Below are positions 26,359 through 33,301 of a DNA stretch of 47,340 bases, in pieces. Numbering within the stretch: position 1 is the stretch's first letter; each line of letters begins with the position of its first letter. Made by a program: the position numbers and the translations under genes. The notes beneath the pieces were generated by a model, which worked only from the letters and a program-made list of their open reading frames with translations, did not search any database and had not been told where the DNA came from. Source of the DNA: Sedimentisphaerales bacterium (GTDB taxonomy: Bacteria; Planctomycetota; Phycisphaerae; Sedimentisphaerales; SM23-30); the NCBI GenBank assembly GCA_028281535.1, contig JANQJS010000054.1, forward strand, positions 1 through 47,340. Reading direction: 5' to 3'.

Positions 26359-27115
26359 TGAACGTTTCATTGTTGAGATGGTAAACTGGATAAGGAGGGT
26401 GGGGCTATCCACTCGGGGGAATCTAAATGAAATGTGGGGTGGGGTATTAATTAATACAGGTCGTAAAAGCGTTAATTTTTGAAAAACACTGGGGAAAATC
26501 TTGGAAAATTATTGTAGAAATCTCAGATTTTAACATGGGTTGTATGTTAGACTTTCCTGTAATAGTTCGGATTTATTCGAGCTCGAAGGGGTGTGGTTTG
26601 TATAAGTGTTTATATTACAGATATATATGCCTGACGGTAGATAGTTTTGGTCGGGAAACGTAGGGATTACTACCCACCGCCAGACGGGGTTCCTATTATT
26701 ACGAGCGTTTACTGCGATACGAATGTTGATAGGAAAATAAAAAATATTAAAAAAAATTTCCGCTTAAATTTTTGGGAATAAGGAGGGTCGGAAATCTAGC
26801 CAGGTCCGGGCGAATATTTTAGGGCGGCTATCTAGTACAATGGTGATATTTATCAATACCATAGTAAAAAAAAATACCTGTCCTGAAAAAATTCTAAATC
26901 CATTTCATTCATTTATTTGCTGAACTATCTGTGTACTGTTTCAAGGTAATCTTAAATTTTTAAATCAACATTGAAACATTTCCAGACGTTAGTGTTAGTG
27001 AAAGCGGATGAATGACAATTCAAACGTTCATGGCAACAAGTCTTAATATTGTCGTTTTGGACTAACCGTTTAAAGCGAGATTAACTCACAAGATTTTATG
27101 GAAGATGGTGCGCTT
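26359..27115. other. Long non-coding stretch with structured elements
   Basis: About 750 bases hold no convincing gene. Visible elements are an 11-bp direct repeat ATAAGGAGGGT (26390-26400 and 26778-26788), a 12-bp palindrome TTCGAGCTCGAA (26576-26587), and a long imperfect hairpin (26631-26683). A short frame (ATG 26348 to stop 26480-26482) overlaps the end of the LamG gene in another frame. G-rich runs contrast with the surrounding A+T-rich DNA. It could be a regulatory region, an RNA gene or a decayed element. Confidence 0.6.
26631..26683 (-). repeat. Imperfect inverted repeat, hairpin favoured in minus-strand RNA
   Basis: Arms CTGACGGTAGATAG (26631-26644) and CTACCCACCGCCAG (26670-26683) enclose a 25-base loop. 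In a minus-strand transcript the three mismatches become G-U pairs, giving an unbroken 14-bp stem; in the plus direction they are A-C mismatches. No T-run follows on either strand, so it is not an ordinary terminator. Confidence 0.5.
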
Positions 27116-28273
27116 ATGCATAAATTTCGTGACAACTTAGCATTAATTATTATTACGTTATTTTATTTTTGCAGTCATTGCTTTTCAGCTGTGAATGTAA
27201 AGATATTTCATGATGATGGGATTACACCCTATTCTGGTCAGAGTATTATGGTTGGAACAGATTTAATTGTTGTTGTGAATTCAGATCAAACGCAACCATG
27301 GAGTGGTGGGTTATTTTTGGAGGGCGAAAAGCGAGGTTTAGCTTCATTAACTGGAAGGAACTATGATCCCAATACAGAGGATTGGGCTGGGTCTCATTTG
27401 ATCGCTGCAGGTCCTGGTGCTCTTGTTCAATCTTATAAGGATTCTGCGATATGGGGATTTGATTTATTTACAGATACATCTCCTGCACCTACCGACTGGT
27501 TTGTGCTGGATTATAAAGCCATTGATGTTGGTGATCCTAATATGGGTTTTTATGACTACAGTGTTAGCTGGGAAGTACCTGGTTCATATTTAGATTTTAA
27601 ACATGTAGCGACTCGTGATTTTAATATGGATAAAAAAGTTGATATTAAAGATTTTTCAATTCTTCAGAAGCATTGGCTTAGCAATCAATGTGTGACTCCT
27701 CAATGGTGTGAAAGTACTGATATCAATCGTGATGGAATTGTTAATGTCGATGATTTATTGTTGTTTGAAACATTTTGGTTATTCGGGGCAGGGGGGGCAA
27801 ATTCAAATCAAGGTCCGCCCGATGTGACTTATAGCTTAGTTGATAATGTCGGTGCTAATGAAATTACCATGAATGTTGGTAGTACGGTAACCTTGTATGT
27901 CGACATGCAGACAGATCCAAATGTTGGTACAAATTCATTTCATTTGGATGTCGTATCAAATAATTATAACTTAGGATCTATTGATAATACTGCCATTGAT
28001 CCCAATTCGCCACCTGGTCCAGGTACTGCTCGCATTTTAGCACAGCCTCGGACTTCTACGTTTGATTATTGGGGCCCAAGTACTATTTCAACTGGTGGCT
28101 TAGAATTTCTTGCAATTAATACTAATCTAACAAATACAATGAATGATGGGAATATTGCAAGCTTTGAATATACTGCAAATCAGGTTGGTGATGTTGAATT
28201 AAGCATTATTAGTAGTAATTATTTCTTGGTTGAAAAACTTAATAAAATTATTATTCACCAAGTTGTTCCGTAG
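27116..28273 (+). CDS. Secreted protein with dockerin-like repeats and cohesin-like C-terminus
   Basis: The product of 385 residues (ATG 27116 preferred because the signal peptide MHKFRDNLALIIITLFYF then starts normally; a further ATG lies at 27098) is exported. A beta domain (about 25-160) is followed by two calcium-loop/helix repeats: DFNMDKKVDIKDFSIL (near 168) and DINRDGIVNVDDLLLFETFW (near 202), typical of dockerin-type EF-hands in Phycisphaerae. A final beta domain (about 235-385) with TLYVDMQTDPN and ASFEYTANQVGDVELSI looks like a cohesin-like sandwich. It may bind surface or matrix partners. Confidence 0.8.
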   Translation: MHKFRDNLALIIITLFYFCSHCFSAVNVKIFHDDGITPYSGQSIMVGTDLIVVVNSDQTQPWSGGLFLEGEKRGLASLTGRNYDPNTEDWAGSHLIAAGPGALVQSYKDSAIWGFDLFTDTSPAPTDWFVLDYKAIDVGDPNMGFYDYSVSWEVPGSYLDFKHVATRDFNMDKKVDIKDFSILQKHWLSNQCVTPQWCESTDINRDGIVNVDDLLLFETFWLFGAGGANSNQGPPDVTYSLVDNVGANEITMNVGSTVTLYVDMQTDPNVGTNSFHLDVVSNNYNLGSIDNTAIDPNSPPGPGTARILAQPRTSTFDYWGPSTISTGGLEFLAINTNLTNTMNDGNIASFEYTANQVGDVELSIISSNYFLVEKLNKIIIHQVVP

Positions 28274-28337: not shown

Positions 28338-30209
28338 ATGATTATAGCAAAACGAAAAATGTTTTTATTATGGATGGTGACGATGTTTTTTATAGCACAA
28401 AATACAGTATTTGCAGATAGGGCGTTAAGTCGCAAAGAAATCATTCAAATTCTTCAATTATTAACATCCGTACCAAAGGATTGCTGGGTCTCTTCGGGAG
28501 AAATTGTTGCTCGCCACGAACAATTCAAAGCCTCCAATTTAGATAGCGAAGAAGAGATTAAGCATTTGGTACAATATGAAAAAGATCAATATTTGGCCAA
28601 TGAAAATAAAGTTGAAATAGTGAATAAAAATCAAGCACTTCGTTTAAATTCAATTGATTTTAACATGCGATATAAACATCTTAATGAAATGACGATGGTG
28701 TCTGAAGAATCTGTTATTTGTGATAATGGACGTTTTATCTGGTCCATTGATGTATTATCTCGTATTGATTCGATCAATCAAAAAACAGCCAACCCTATGT
28801 CTGACCAATTTGATGTTAAACTGAATACTAGCCGAATATTTTGTTGGGATGGTAAGCAGTACACCCGTTATTACAAATCTGCCAATAGTGCTATTGTCAC
28901 TGAATCTGTTGATGATATTCCGGTCAAAGTTAATGGGCCATTAACTGCTGGTGTCGTTCCCTGGGGACATGGGTATTACTCACTGGAAAAACTATTGACC
29001 GGATCGATTAATGCGTTAGAAATTTTAGATGGTAATGTTAGTGAAATTCATATGAATATAGAATTTTCTAAAGACTATAAAGCTTCATTCATTCTTGACC
29101 CATCTAAGGAATATTCTGTTTTGAATGCAACTGAGATTCATTCAGAAGATAAAGTAACGATGAACACCTATGATGAATATGAAAATGTTGATGGCCAGTG
29201 GATTCCAAAGATCATCATGATTGAAAAATATGATTATTCTCATCGTCGTCCACTACGATCGCGTGACGTATGGAATATGTCAAAAATAGTAGTAAATAAA
29301 AAAGCAATGAGTTCAACTGTTTTTCAGGTCAATTATAATCAAGATGCCATTATTGAGCATCGTCCCTCATTTACCGATCAGATACAAATGTATCGATATA
29401 CTAAATCTGATGGTTCCAAAAAAAGTAGGACAATTAATACGGATAAATTACTGAAAGAGCGTTTGAAAATTGCTCAAACTTCGATAACTACAAATAAAGA
29501 GAATTGCGCTACTTTAGCGGTGCGTTATGTCGCTAGTCAACTGGAGATCCCTATGGATAATGTTGATTTAAGCATGTTAATTGATTCTAGTGGTAATGGT
29601 TCAAGTTTACTGGCCTTAAGTGATTATTTCGAAGAGTTAAGTTTATACCATAAAGCGGTAAAAACAGATCTGAAAACATTAAAATCTTTAAAAAATTGCC
29701 ATGTCATACTACATCTACCAGGTAAAAATCATTATGTAGTTTTGGGAGAATTTAATGATAAATATGTAAGGCTCATTGATCTTACTAAAGCCAATTTTTA
29801 TTACCGAATTGATACTAGTATGTTCTGGAAAGATTGGGGAGAAGGGGTTGCTTTAATTATTTCTGAATATCCTATCAATTTGCCAGAAACGTCGATTGAT
29901 ATTAATCCAATTGAACAGCAAGCAATTATTGGAGCTGATACCTGCAAATTTGGATGTTATCAATGCACTAAAGTCCTGCAATATTTCCAAACAGAATTCT
30001 GCCCTCAGCAAACTCCTCAAGGTGAATGCTTGGGGACGTATACTCGTCATCGATTTCGAAAGGGCTGTGATTCAGGGGGGACTGGAAGTTGTCTGGGTAC
30101 GACACTCATTAAAAAAGAAGTAGCCGGCTGTCGAGTAAAGGCCTTTTCTCCAAGCGAGTGCGAGCTAGATGGGAGTTGGGCGGTATATCATATGCGTGCA
30201 TGTCAGTAA
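28338..30209 (+). CDS. Secreted C39-peptidase-like protein with cysteine-rich tail
   Basis: The 623-residue protein has a signal peptide (about 1-26, FFIAQNTVFA) and a large beta-rich region (about 30-345) resembling a LolA/lipoprotein-carrier-like fold. A papain-like C39 domain (about 380-505) has candidate catalytic Cys390 (KENCATLAVRY), His465 (KNHYVVL) and Asp481 (VRLIDLTK). The usual Gly after the Cys is Ala, so activity is uncertain. The last 90 residues (about 532-623) contain ten cysteines, beginning CKFGCYQC and ending RAC, probably disulphide-bonded outside the cytoplasm. There is no ABC transporter domain. The solo prepilin follows 139 bases downstream. Confidence 0.78.
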   Translation: MIIAKRKMFLLWMVTMFFIAQNTVFADRALSRKEIIQILQLLTSVPKDCWVSSGEIVARHEQFKASNLDSEEEIKHLVQYEKDQYLANENKVEIVNKNQALRLNSIDFNMRYKHLNEMTMVSEESVICDNGRFIWSIDVLSRIDSINQKTANPMSDQFDVKLNTSRIFCWDGKQYTRYYKSANSAIVTESVDDIPVKVNGPLTAGVVPWGHGYYSLEKLLTGSINALEILDGNVSEIHMNIEFSKDYKASFILDPSKEYSVLNATEIHSEDKVTMNTYDEYENVDGQWIPKIIMIEKYDYSHRRPLRSRDVWNMSKIVVNKKAMSSTVFQVNYNQDAIIEHRPSFTDQIQMYRYTKSDGSKKSRTINTDKLLKERLKIAQTSITTNKENCATLAVRYVASQLEIPMDNVDLSMLIDSSGNGSSLLALSDYFEELSLYHKAVKTDLKTLKSLKNCHVILHLPGKNHYVVLGEFNDKYVRLIDLTKANFYYRIDTSMFWKDWGEGVALIISEYPINLPETSIDINPIEQQAIIGADTCKFGCYQCTKVLQYFQTEFCPQQTPQGECLGTYTRHRFRKGCDSGGTGSCLGTTLIKKEVAGCRVKAFSPSECELDGSWAVYHMRACQ

Positions 30210-30348: not shown

Positions 30349-31320
30349 ATGAGGCGTGTAGGGTTCACATTAATAGAATTAGTAGTGGTTATTTCTATAA
30401 TATCACTCTTAGTAGCGATTCTATTGCCTGCATTGTTCAAAGCAAAATGTAGTGCTAAAGCTATAAAATGTGCATCAAATATTCGACAGATTTCCAAGGG
30501 ATTGGTTGAATATGATTTAGAGCAAGGCCGTTTACCTTATAGTTTGCGGGACAAAACATCTACGCCGAACGAACCCCCTGAACCTTCCACTAAATTTGCA
30601 GGTGATAGTATATACGACGTTGCCGGGTGGTGGTGGTTTGACTATATCGCACCTTATATTGGTACGGATGAATTTGTTATTGGGAGCGAATTGACCAAAA
30701 GTGTTTTACGATGTCCATCACGAAGTGGAGAAATAAATGAACCGCTTTATGGGGAAAACATTTTGTGGGGAAATTATGGCGTTAATCAGTCCCTTCTAAA
30801 AAGGCGTTATAATAATGATGAATCAGACATAGGGTTTAAAGAGTCACTTAAAGATCTTATGCAGGATGAGTTTTGGGGGATTCCATTATCAATAAGTTCA
30901 ATTTCAAATCCTTCTGAGACATTAATGATTGTGGATTGTGGATATGCTACTATTAATTGGCATCGTGTAACAGATGATCCTGTATTAAATCCAAGTAGGG
31001 AATTTTCTGGTGGGCCTTATGATACATCGAGGCAGGGGTTAACATATATTCCTGGTATGACTATAAATAGCGAAATAGTTATTTTAGGAACGGATGAATT
31101 AGCTATTTGGGATGATCAAAAAAGTGATGCCATAAAGGGTAGGCATTGCGGAAAAAAAGTTAATGTTGGTTTTGCAGATGGACATGTTGCTAGAGTTGAC
31201 TCAGACGAACTACTAGTTGAAACGGTACAAAATATAGAGATTTCAGTTTCGCAAACAGGTGGGGGCCTTGGAGCTACCTCAAAACGCTATGGGAATTTAA
31301 GACCGCTTTGGTCACCCTAG
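30349..31320 (+). CDS. Solo prepilin-type protein with C-terminal H-x-DG motif
   Basis: The 323-residue protein has a five-residue leader MRRVG and then [20 protein letters not shown] with Glu at +5: a standard class III signal for prepilin peptidase. The following helix ([20 protein letters not shown]) and the C-terminal [17 protein letters not shown] place it in the planctomycete/lentisphaera prepilin group (DUF1559-like). The usual spacing there is H-x9-DG; here it is ten residues. It lies downstream of the C39-like gene and converges on the anti-sigma gene, ending four bases into it. It is separate from the T2SS operon. Confidence 0.9.
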
Positions 31321-32765
31321 TTAGTATTTGGCATGGGGTTGTTTATTGCGGTAATTCGATTTAATGCGTTTGTCACATCTTGCTGGTTCACATAATCATA
31401 GGTCGTTAAACTTATTAATTTAAACGTTGGTGTTTCTATAGCATCAACAACCATATCTTTCCTAAATGTTTCAGTTTTCATGACAAGATTATTTTGTTGG
31501 CTGATATACCATAGTCGTTTGTAATGTGTGGTATTCGAATTAATTGAAGTCTTCCACTCGAGTTTATAGATGTCTAGATCAGGGGCGTTAGTCTTTGTTT
31601 GAAGTTTTTCGATGCTTGCATTCTCTGGTAAGCGACCATGTTCTCCCAATGGTATCAAATAAAACTGTGATGTGAAAATATTCTGAATGTCGGTGTTCGC
31701 CGCCTGGCTAAGGGGGGTTGTTAATATTTTATTCGAATTGAAATCATTTACAATTCGAGTTCGATTGATTAAATCAAAAACACCTGCTTGTTGTCTTTTG
31801 TGATCAATCATTACATATTTGCTTAAGGTTCTTGATGCCCATGTTTCCTGGTTAAGTTTGTTATTGTCACCAAAATATTCTTTGATGTGAATATTGTTAG
31901 CTTTTTTGATGGCTTCTGCGAGTTCATTGTGCTCAAAGGCGGTTAAGTTCTGTGAGTTGAACATGAAAAGGCCGAAGACAATTAGTAAAACAGCGGCCGC
32001 AGCAAAGGGCTTAATCCATTTAGGTGTTTTCGTTGTTCTGTTATTATTGTCTGGCAATATCAGATTTTGCTTGTTTGTATTTTGTTGAATGTCTGAGTCC
32101 GTATTAGCAGAGACAGTCTGTTTTGGAGTTAATAATTGGATGTCATATGGTAATTCGTCTGAATGCTCAGAAGTGTTTTCTGCGGTGAAGCGCGTAACGA
32201 CGCCTGAGGGTTCTCTGTGATATATTTCATTCGCTATACTCAATAATGCTTTATCTTCAGGTAAGTCGTCAGAGAAAAGCGTTTGTTTTGCTGCTTGTAT
32301 GAATGATTGGTTAATCGGGATTTTTTGAGAAAATAAACTCGATAATCTGATTGCCATTGTTTGGCTTAAATGCAAGCGTTGAAGTTTTTCCAGGTCACTC
32401 AGGCAGTTCTCGCAGTGTTCCAGATGGCTGGTGATTGGCGTTGCAATGCTGGTTTTCATCTCAGGGATTGCTAGCAATGGTAGAAAAGGTTTTGCGGTCT
32501 GGCAATCAATATCTTTACCAATAAAACTAAATTGCAATTGTAATGTTCTTGTCAAGGTTTGTGTTTTTTCACTATCATGATCACTTAAGTGCCGTTCGTT
32601 GGACACACAATCGTTCAATCGCTGTGTTTCTGCTTGGCAATGACTACAAACATTGTAATGTGTTATAATGTCTGCAGGGATCGTTGCAATAGCCTCTTGA
32701 TCTAATAAGTCAAAATAATAAGGCTCGACTTCACTACATGTTTTATTGAAATTCGCTGCGATCAT
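31317..32765 (-). CDS. Transmembrane anti-sigma factor with two zinc motifs
   Basis: The 482-residue protein has two H-x3-C-x2-C motifs of the zinc anti-sigma type: His36-Cys40-Cys43 (HYNVCSHC) and His114-Cys118-Cys121 (HLEHCENC). One membrane helix follows (about 249-268, [15 protein letters not shown]), then a long extracytoplasmic domain (about 275-482) that could be the sensor, with an order of strands like lipoprotein-carrier folds. Its ATG overlaps the sigma-factor stop (ATGA), showing translational coupling. It should hold the upstream ECF factor until an envelope signal is received; regulated proteolysis is a family expectation only. Confidence 0.85.
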
Positions 32766-33301
32766 TCATCCTCCCCTTGATATGCCATGGTTTTTCGTAA
32801 TTTATTCAAACCATTTGAGACATAGCGGCTAATTGAGCGCGATTTTACGCCCATTTTTTCAGCTGTTTCTTGAGTGTTATAGTTATTCATATATCTAAGT
32901 GTAATTGCTTGGGCTTCACTTTTGGAAAGTTGTTTTGTCAAAGCTTGAAACGTCATTTCCAAATCCTCCCTTTCAAGTTCTGTGACATTTGTTTTTCGTC
33001 GATCGTCGTTACTCTTTATGACATCAGTATAATTTTTTAGCTTTAGCTGATATCGCTTGGTGCGTCGAGATGCGTCGATAATATCATTTATGATAGATCG
33101 ATACAAATAACTTCTAATATTTTTAATATTTTCAGGAATTGGGTGGGTAATAAGTTTTAAGAAAAAGTCTTGAAATAGATCTTCAGCCAAAGTTTTATCA
33201 GAAACTTTAAATTGAATGATGGTCTTTATATAGTCCCCATGTTCAGAAAATATTTTTGTAGCATGATCCTGGTTTGTCATATTATTTAGTGCTTTTGCCA
33301 T
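32762..33301 (-). CDS. ECF RNA polymerase sigma factor
   Basis: The 179-residue sigma factor has region 2 (TLAEDLFQDFFLKLI, then IRSYLYRSIINDIIDASR) and region 4 (LSKSEAQAITLRYMNNYNTQ, followed by a helix-turn-helix EKMGVKSRSISRYVSNGLN). Length is normal for ECF factors. ATG 33301 is used; a second ATG eight codons in (33280) is possible. The gene overlaps the anti-sigma gene by four bases. A good promoter lies 62-90 bases upstream. Targets are unknown; the adjacent envelope genes are candidates. Confidence 0.92.
   Translation of the reverse strand: MAKALNNMTNQDHATKIFSEHGDYIKTIIQFKVSDKTLAEDLFQDFFLKLITHPIPENIKNIRSYLYRSIINDIIDASRRTKRYQLKLKNYTDVIKSNDDRRKTNVTELEREDLEMTFQALTKQLSKSEAQAITLRYMNNYNTQETAEKMGVKSRSISRYVSNGLNKLRKTMAYQGEDE

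What the first reader, a model, noticed from the sequence alone, without database searches (positions are those of the whole stretch)
28338..30209. Secreted C39-like peptidase with a ten-cysteine tail
C39 domains usually sit on ABC transporters and cut double-glycine leaders inside the cell. Here the domain has its own signal peptide, follows a large lipoprotein-carrier-like region and ends in a ten-cysteine module. Cys390, His465 and Asp481 are in proper order. The Cys-rich end could be a binding module, a pro-peptide or a peptide released by self-cleavage.
Basis: partly seen in the sequence, partly recalled or inferred. Interest (0 to 1): 0.6.

Follow-up and report, generated by a model that had tools for sequence, protein, structure and literature searches.

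The report
Exported protease fused to its cargo
A group of uncultured planctomycete bacteria makes an exported cysteine protease whose own tail carries a cutting signal of the kind this enzyme family recognises, so the protein probably cuts itself outside the cytoplasm and releases a small disulfide-rich peptide without the usual ABC exporter.

Summary
In detail: window 28338-30209(+) encodes a 623-aa protein with a signal peptide, a LolA/LolB-like domain, a C39 domain (Cys390/His465/Asp481) and a ten-Cys tail. Between the C39 domain and the tail lies a double-glycine leader (hydrophobic at -12/-7/-4, then G-G/A/S). It was not in the finding and occurs at that junction throughout the family. 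AlphaFold2 is confident about this segment only when the C39 domain is present. One relative carries a split version: two small exported proteins (signal peptide + GG leader + eight-Cys domain) beside a tail-less LolA-C39 protease. Eight tail cysteines are conserved in 54-55 of 55 homologues; the window's extra two occur in three. The family was found only in Sedimentisphaerales (Phycisphaerae), in a conserved cassette with a dockerin-like secreted protein, an H-X9-DG pseudopilin and an anti-sigma/ECF-sigma pair. Cleavage and the peptide's role are inferred, not shown. Closest known: PCAT/ComA double-glycine proteases and the periplasmic C39 protease FapD, whose target was unclear in 2017. Verdict: new variant of a known kind.

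The parts
28338..30209 (+). whole gene: signal peptide - LolA-like domain - C39 protease - double-glycine leader - Cys-rich tail (623 aa)
28338..28415 (+). Sec-type signal peptide, aa 1-26 (by inspection)
   Evidence: sequence; the other full-length homologues shown have comparable hydrophobic N-termini
28434..29372 (+). LolA/LolB-like domain, aa ~33-345
   Evidence: Foldseek and VIA-align matches to LolA/LolB
29433..29873 (+). C39 peptidase domain, aa 366-512
   Evidence: Pfam PF03412 52.7 bits; PDB sequence matches ComA 3k8u E 2.9e-7; VIA Z 14.3 to 6mpz, 5xe8, 8vp5
29505..29507 (+). catalytic Cys390 codon, 55/55 conserved
29730..29732 (+). catalytic His465 codon, 55/55 conserved
29778..29780 (+). 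catalytic Asp481 codon, 54/55 conserved (Asn in one)
29898..29936 (+). double-glycine leader, aa 521-533 (DINPIEQQAIIGA); predicted cleavage after A533 (between 29936 and 29937)
   Evidence: helix 524-529 with high pLDDT only when the C39 domain is present
29937..30206 (+). predicted released peptide, aa 534-623: all-beta, ten Cys (eight conserved in the family)
27098..28273 (+). cassette partner F2: secreted protein with dockerin-type repeat, upstream in 26 of 30 loci
30349..31320 (+). cassette partner F1: type IV pilin-like (H-X9-DG) protein, in 28 of 30 loci
31317..32765 (-). cassette partner F3: zinc-finger-type anti-sigma-like membrane protein, in 25 of 30 loci
32762..33301 (-). cassette partner F4: ECF sigma factor, in 22 of 30 loci
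26964..26990 (+). candidate ECF-type promoter ATCAAC-N15-GACGTT upstream of F2
   Evidence: shared ATCAAY-N15-RACGAC motif; suggestive only

Best explanation
This is a self-processing exported precursor. The polypeptide leaves the cytoplasm by the Sec route. Its C39 domain recognises the double-glycine leader just downstream in the same chain (hydrophobic anchors at -12, -7 and -4 seated in the C39 groove, small residues at -2/-1 in the active site). It cuts after A533, in cis or between two copies, and frees an ~90-residue disulfide-rich peptide in the periplasm or beyond. Shown by computation: the domain order, the conserved triad, the leader motif at the junction, the split version, and the cassette. 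Inferred: that cleavage happens, where exactly, and what the peptide does. My guess for the last is a regulated surface or signalling product, made with the pseudopilin and dockerin-like protein under the neighbouring ECF sigma/anti-sigma pair.
For: (1) C39 fold and triad: nearest solved relatives by sequence are the double-glycine proteases ComA and PCAT1; VIA Z 14.3 to 6mpz, 5xe8 and 8vp5; triad conserved 55/55, 55/55, 54/55. (2) Leader: across 55 homologues -12 is I/L/V in 55, -7 is L in 39, -4 is I in 45, -2 is G in every aligned residue (53), -1 is G/A/S in 50 of 51. The full five-position motif sits at the junction in 41 of 55, against 0.15 chance sites per whole shuffled protein. The published consensus is L(-12)xxxE(-8)L(-7)..G(-2)G(-1), with hydrophobics at -4/-7/-12 and GG/GA/GS (PMC6959990, PMC6363468, PMC10885120). 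Tails alone weakly hit leader families: GG_sam_targ_CFB E 0.0027, ComC, Bacteriocin_IIc, bacteriocin_sig. (3) AlphaFold2: aa 521-530 mean pLDDT 96 in the full protein but 57-69 for these residues in the tail-only model; helix 524-529 is -10 to -5, where the bound CtA and LahT-substrate leaders are helical. (4) Split version in G483 (L153): two exported small proteins, each signal peptide + GG leader + eight Cys, beside a tail-less LolA-C39 protease. (5) The window's genome (99% complete) has no other Pfam C39 domain. (6) Cassette conservation and co-occurrence with the anti-sigma gene, 27/1/2/29, Fisher p 2e-13.
Against: No cleavage data exist. No model coordinates were available, so docking of the leader near Cys390 was inferred from confidence and helix position, not measured. 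The window's own leader has Gln at -7 and Gly-Ala at -2/-1, so it meets four of the five positions. A few homologues have M, L, Q or T at -1. The oxyanion Gln common in C39 (six before the Cys) is missing (T384; Gly in 29 of 55), although its role is doubted in LahT150 (PMC6363468). The split protease keeps Cys and His but not the Asp, was not recognised by Pfam C39, and the split form was found in one genome only.
Confidence: 0.7

Rival explanations
1. The tail is a permanent binding or anchoring module. The leader-like segment docks on the C39 groove to hold or autoinhibit the enzyme but is not cut; the protease acts on another exported protein.
For: Protease and tail stay fused in all 55 full-length homologues aligned, and a split form was found in one genome of 161 searched. 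Tail identity (0.41) is close to that of the protease (0.45), unlike a fast-evolving cargo. A few members have unusual -1 residues.
Against: Small residues (G/A/S) at -1 in nearly all members and the invariant -2 Gly are cleavage-site features, not just docking features. The split version shows the tail as a separate exported protein with its own GG leader.
Confidence: 0.15
2. The Cys-rich tail is an inhibitory pro-domain. Self-cleavage removes it and the freed LolA-C39 enzyme then processes a neighbour, such as the pseudopilin, the dockerin-like protein or the anti-sigma factor.
For: Tight genomic association with an anti-sigma/ECF pair, even where they are unlinked. Weak tail similarities to cystatin-like folds (Z 2-3), not significant.
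Against: No double-glycine leader was noticed in the pseudopilin and dockerin-like proteins on inspection of their alignments. The separate small exported proteins in L153 look like products, not inhibitory domains.
Confidence: 0.12
3. The C39 domain is catalytically dead and serves only to bind, like the C39-like domain of some type 1 secretion systems (HlyB).
For: The oxyanion Gln is missing and the split protease lacks the Asp.
Against: Cys390 and His465 are invariant in 55 of 55; the C39-like domains without catalytic activity (PMC5557850) have, from general knowledge, lost the catalytic Cys.
Confidence: 0.03

Closest known systems
PCAT/AMS double-glycine proteases (ComA, PCAT1, LahT)
   Same: C39 fold (Z 13-14), Cys/His/Asp triad, leader with -12/-7/-4 anchors and GG/GA/GS site
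   Different: No ABC transporter; exported by Sec; protease and leader-cargo are one polypeptide; extra LolA-like domain; no oxyanion Gln
FapD, periplasmic C39 protease of the Pseudomonas amyloid system
   Same: Sec-exported stand-alone C39 enzyme; the only NCBIfam match (18.4 bits, far below the 330 cut-off); FapD needs its Cys for function (PMC5557850)
   Different: No fused cargo is described for FapD and its target was unclear in that paper; here the likely substrate is in the same chain, plus a LolA-like domain
LolA/LolB lipoprotein carriers
   Same: N-terminal domain fold
   Different: Fused to a protease; lipid or lipoprotein binding not tested
Double-glycine-leader bacteriocins and pheromones (ComC, class II bacteriocins)
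   Same: Leader consensus at the junction; weak profile hits
   Different: Leader lies in the middle of a Sec-exported enzyme, or in the split form behind a signal peptide; the cargo is a conserved eight-Cys domain with no match in PDB sequences and no significant fold match

Membership tests
Peptidase family C39 (PF03412) | Profile match above the curated cut-off | tested here: met
   52.7 bits vs 22
Peptidase family C39 (PF03412) | Cys-His-Asp catalytic residues in order | tested here: met
   C390, H465, D481 in 55/55, 55/55, 54/55
Peptidase family C39 (PF03412) | C39 papain-like fold | tested here: met
   VIA Z 14.3, rmsd 2.3-2.8, 122-133 aligned, to 6mpz/5xe8/8vp5
Peptidase family C39 (PF03412) | Oxyanion Gln six residues before the Cys (common, not defining) | tested here: not met
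   T384 in the window, mostly Gly in the family; role doubted in LahT150 (PMC6363468)
PCAT/AMS bifunctional transporters | C39 domain fused to ABC transporter membrane and ATPase domains | tested here: not met
   Only Peptidase_C39 found in the Pfam scan; the remaining sequence is LolA-like and Cys-rich
Double-glycine leader peptides | Hydrophobic -12, -7, -4 and G-(G/A/S) at -2/-1 | tested here: met
   All five in 41 of 55 homologues at the junction; the window itself meets four of five (Gln at -7)
Double-glycine leader peptides | Cleavage after the -1 residue by a C39 protease | not testable with these tools
   Needs expression and mass spectrometry
FapD (NF058616) | NCBIfam equivalog score of at least 330 bits | tested here: not met
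   18.4 bits
LolA/LolB superfamily (N-terminal domain) | LolA/LolB fold | tested here: met
   Foldseek E 4e-8 to LolA3; VIA Z up to 12.3
LolA/LolB superfamily (N-terminal domain) | Binding of lipoproteins or lipids | not testable with these tools

The most novel reading that the evidence does not exclude
An order-wide, sigma-factor-controlled peptide export route that needs no ABC transporter: Sec moves a protease-leader-cargo fusion out of the cytoplasm, the C39 domain frees the cargo outside, and the disulfide-rich peptide acts as a signal, effector or building block of a pseudopilin/dockerin surface structure.
Probability: 0.3. Interest if true: 0.8.

Novelty: new variant of a known kind. 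Interest (0 to 1): 0.62.

Why it matters
Double-glycine proteases are known mainly as cytoplasmic parts of ABC exporters that cut separate precursors. Here enzyme, recognition signal and cargo appear in one exported chain, which would be an exporter-free way to make small disulfide-rich peptides. It also gives a system with a built-in candidate substrate for studying extracytoplasmic C39 enzymes such as FapD, whose target was described as unclear in 2017 (PMC5557850). It could serve as a self-contained tool for releasing disulfide-rich peptides in the periplasm, and it points to an uncharacterised regulated cassette in Sedimentisphaerales.

Tried and rejected
A single-sequence scan of genome contigs found nothing; the alignment query worked. 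PF13529 (C39_2) is absent from the genome. The tail has no PDB sequence match, no Foldseek match at E <= 0.001 and VIA Z at most 3.3, so no fold is named; cystine-knot and cystatin-like rows are at noise level. Tail members had no Pfam family better than E 0.02. PHROGs and PADLOC gave nothing, so no phage or defence link. Hits outside the order cover only part of the query, nearly all of them the C39 region. Homology between the anti-sigma protein F3 and the LolA-like domain was tested and not found. The apparent stand-alone tails in G501 and G458 were chance and that in G527 is a contig-cut member. Literature searches found no report of this fusion in the held library.

Full report
Check of the observation. 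Pfam finds Peptidase_C39 at aa 385-509 with 52.7 bits against a cut-off of 22. The N-terminus is a Sec-type signal peptide by eye. AlphaFold2 on 55 sequences gave mean pLDDT 89.6 and pTM 0.88. In that model aa 366-512 match ComA, LahT and PCAT1 protease domains at VIA Z 12-14, and aa 33-345 match LolA/LolB. By sequence the best solved relatives are ComA (3k8u, E 2.9e-7) and PCAT1, all double-glycine proteases.

Family and distribution. A search of 59 related genomes found homologues in 29, one of them only a weak C39 match. A second scan with an alignment brought 64 named loci, whose titles where specific read Sedimentisphaerales, Phycisphaerae, Phycisphaerales or Planctomycetota. A phylum-wide sample gave the full protein only within the order; hits outside cover only part of the query, nearly all the C39 region. 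In 55 full-length members Cys390 and His465 are invariant and Asp481 is kept in 54. Eight tail cysteines (543, 555, 564, 577, 585, 598, 608, 622) are kept in 54-55. The window's extra pair C536/C540 occurs in three members, always together, and one of these has lost C577 and C585 together; this suggests C536-C540 and C577-C585 disulfides, by inference.

The leader. The key point is at the junction. Across the family, aa 521-533 follow E/D-[ILV]-x4-L-x2-I-x-G-[GAS]. That is the published C39 substrate signal: L(-12), E(-8), L(-7), hydrophobic -4 and GG, GA or GS (PMC6959990; PMC6363468; PMC10885120). Counts are 55/55 hydrophobic at -12, 39 Leu at -7, 45 Ile at -4, every aligned -2 is Gly, and 50 of 51 aligned -1 residues are G/A/S. 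All five positions are met at the junction in 41 of 55 proteins, against 0.15 such sites per whole shuffled protein; related sequences are not independent, so this is a description rather than a p-value. Tail segments scanned alone weakly hit leader families: GG_sam_targ_CFB E 0.0027, bacteriocin_sig, ComC and Bacteriocin_IIc. The window's own leader is one of the weaker ones (Gln at -7, Gly-Ala at the site).

Structure of the junction. In the full-length model aa 521-530 have mean pLDDT 96 and aa 524-529 are helical. In a model of leader plus tail alone the same residues fall to 57-69. So the segment is confident only when the rest of the protein is there, which fits docking on the C39 domain. 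Leaders bound to PCAT1 and LahT form a helix at -10 to -4 and -11 to -4 in the C39 groove (PMC6959990, PMC6363468); here the helix is -10 to -5.

The split version. In genome G483 (L153) two adjacent genes (609-992 and about 1297-1677) encode small exported proteins with a signal peptide, a textbook leader (VIPDDEAAQVTGG and AVPESEAALIVGG) and eight cysteines after the leader. Next to them lies a 466-aa LolA-C39 protease that ends where the leader would begin. The same genome also has a fused copy. This shows that leader plus Cys domain is a separable substrate-like unit. Limits: it was found in one of 161 genomes, the split protease keeps Cys and His but not Asp and is not recognised by Pfam, and the two small genes have dN/dS about 1 (0.29/0.28), which is compatible with diversification or with relaxed selection.

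Neighbourhood. In 30 loci the gene is flanked in the same order by a dockerin-like secreted protein (26), an H-X9-DG pseudopilin (28), and on the other strand an anti-sigma-like protein (25) and an ECF sigma factor (22). The gene and the anti-sigma family co-occur in genomes 27/1/2/29 (Fisher p 2e-13, without correction for ancestry), including G017, G055 and G058, where they are on different contigs. A candidate ECF promoter, ATCAAY-N15-RACGAC, lies upstream of the first gene in many loci (window 26964-26990). A matrix built from those sites also picks out 7 of 22 sigma-gene upstream regions above the background 95% level. This is suggestive; several of those loci are close relatives and the window's own sigma gene lacks it.

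Mechanism. Best supported: Sec export, then C39 cleavage at the double-glycine site, releasing a disulfide-rich peptide of about 90 residues. Whether the cut is in cis or trans, and what the peptide does, is not known. The window's genome holds no second Pfam C39 domain, which makes this tail the obvious substrate. Two rivals remain open: a docked but uncut tail, and an inhibitory pro-domain whose removal frees the protease for a neighbour.

Comparison. It is a member of peptidase family C39 by profile, triad and fold; the common oxyanion Gln is missing (T384), which lowers certainty about activity, although in the LahT co-crystal that Gln lies 4.3 A from the oxyanion and the catalytic His was proposed for the role instead (PMC6363468). 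It is not a PCAT transporter. It resembles FapD in being a Sec-exported C39 enzyme but is not FapD (18.4 of 330 bits). The fusion of protease, leader and cargo was not found in the held literature, which is limited to open-licence papers.

Verdict. A real, order-wide, previously unnamed architecture (as far as the held library shows); a new variant of a known kind, with a clear and cheap decisive experiment.

Noticed in passing
L050:160-1719 (G002:C21): A different C39 protein in the window's own family: lipobox-like N-terminus, C39 domain (E 5e-16), then DUF1573/Ig-like domains and no Cys tail.
   Followed up: partly
L153:609-1677: The two stand-alone Cys-rich precursors diverge with dN/dS about 1 while keeping all eight cysteines.
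   Followed up: partly
L106:3984-5524 and L191 (G515:C284, likely the same contig): The homologue is split into two overlapping frames just after the catalytic Cys; a frameshift or assembly error.
   Followed up: no
window 31317-32765 (-) and relatives in A5: The anti-sigma-like family has repeated H-x3-C-x2-C motifs and varies from about 430 to 600 aa; longer members seem to carry extra copies of the zinc-finger-like part.
   Followed up: no
window 30349-32765: The pseudopilin and anti-sigma genes are convergent and overlap by four bases at their stop codons.
   Followed up: no
L022, L024-L027, L029 (F5 family, about 320-350 aa): A further gene family recurs beyond the sigma factor in several loci (8 in all); not identified.
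   Followed up: no
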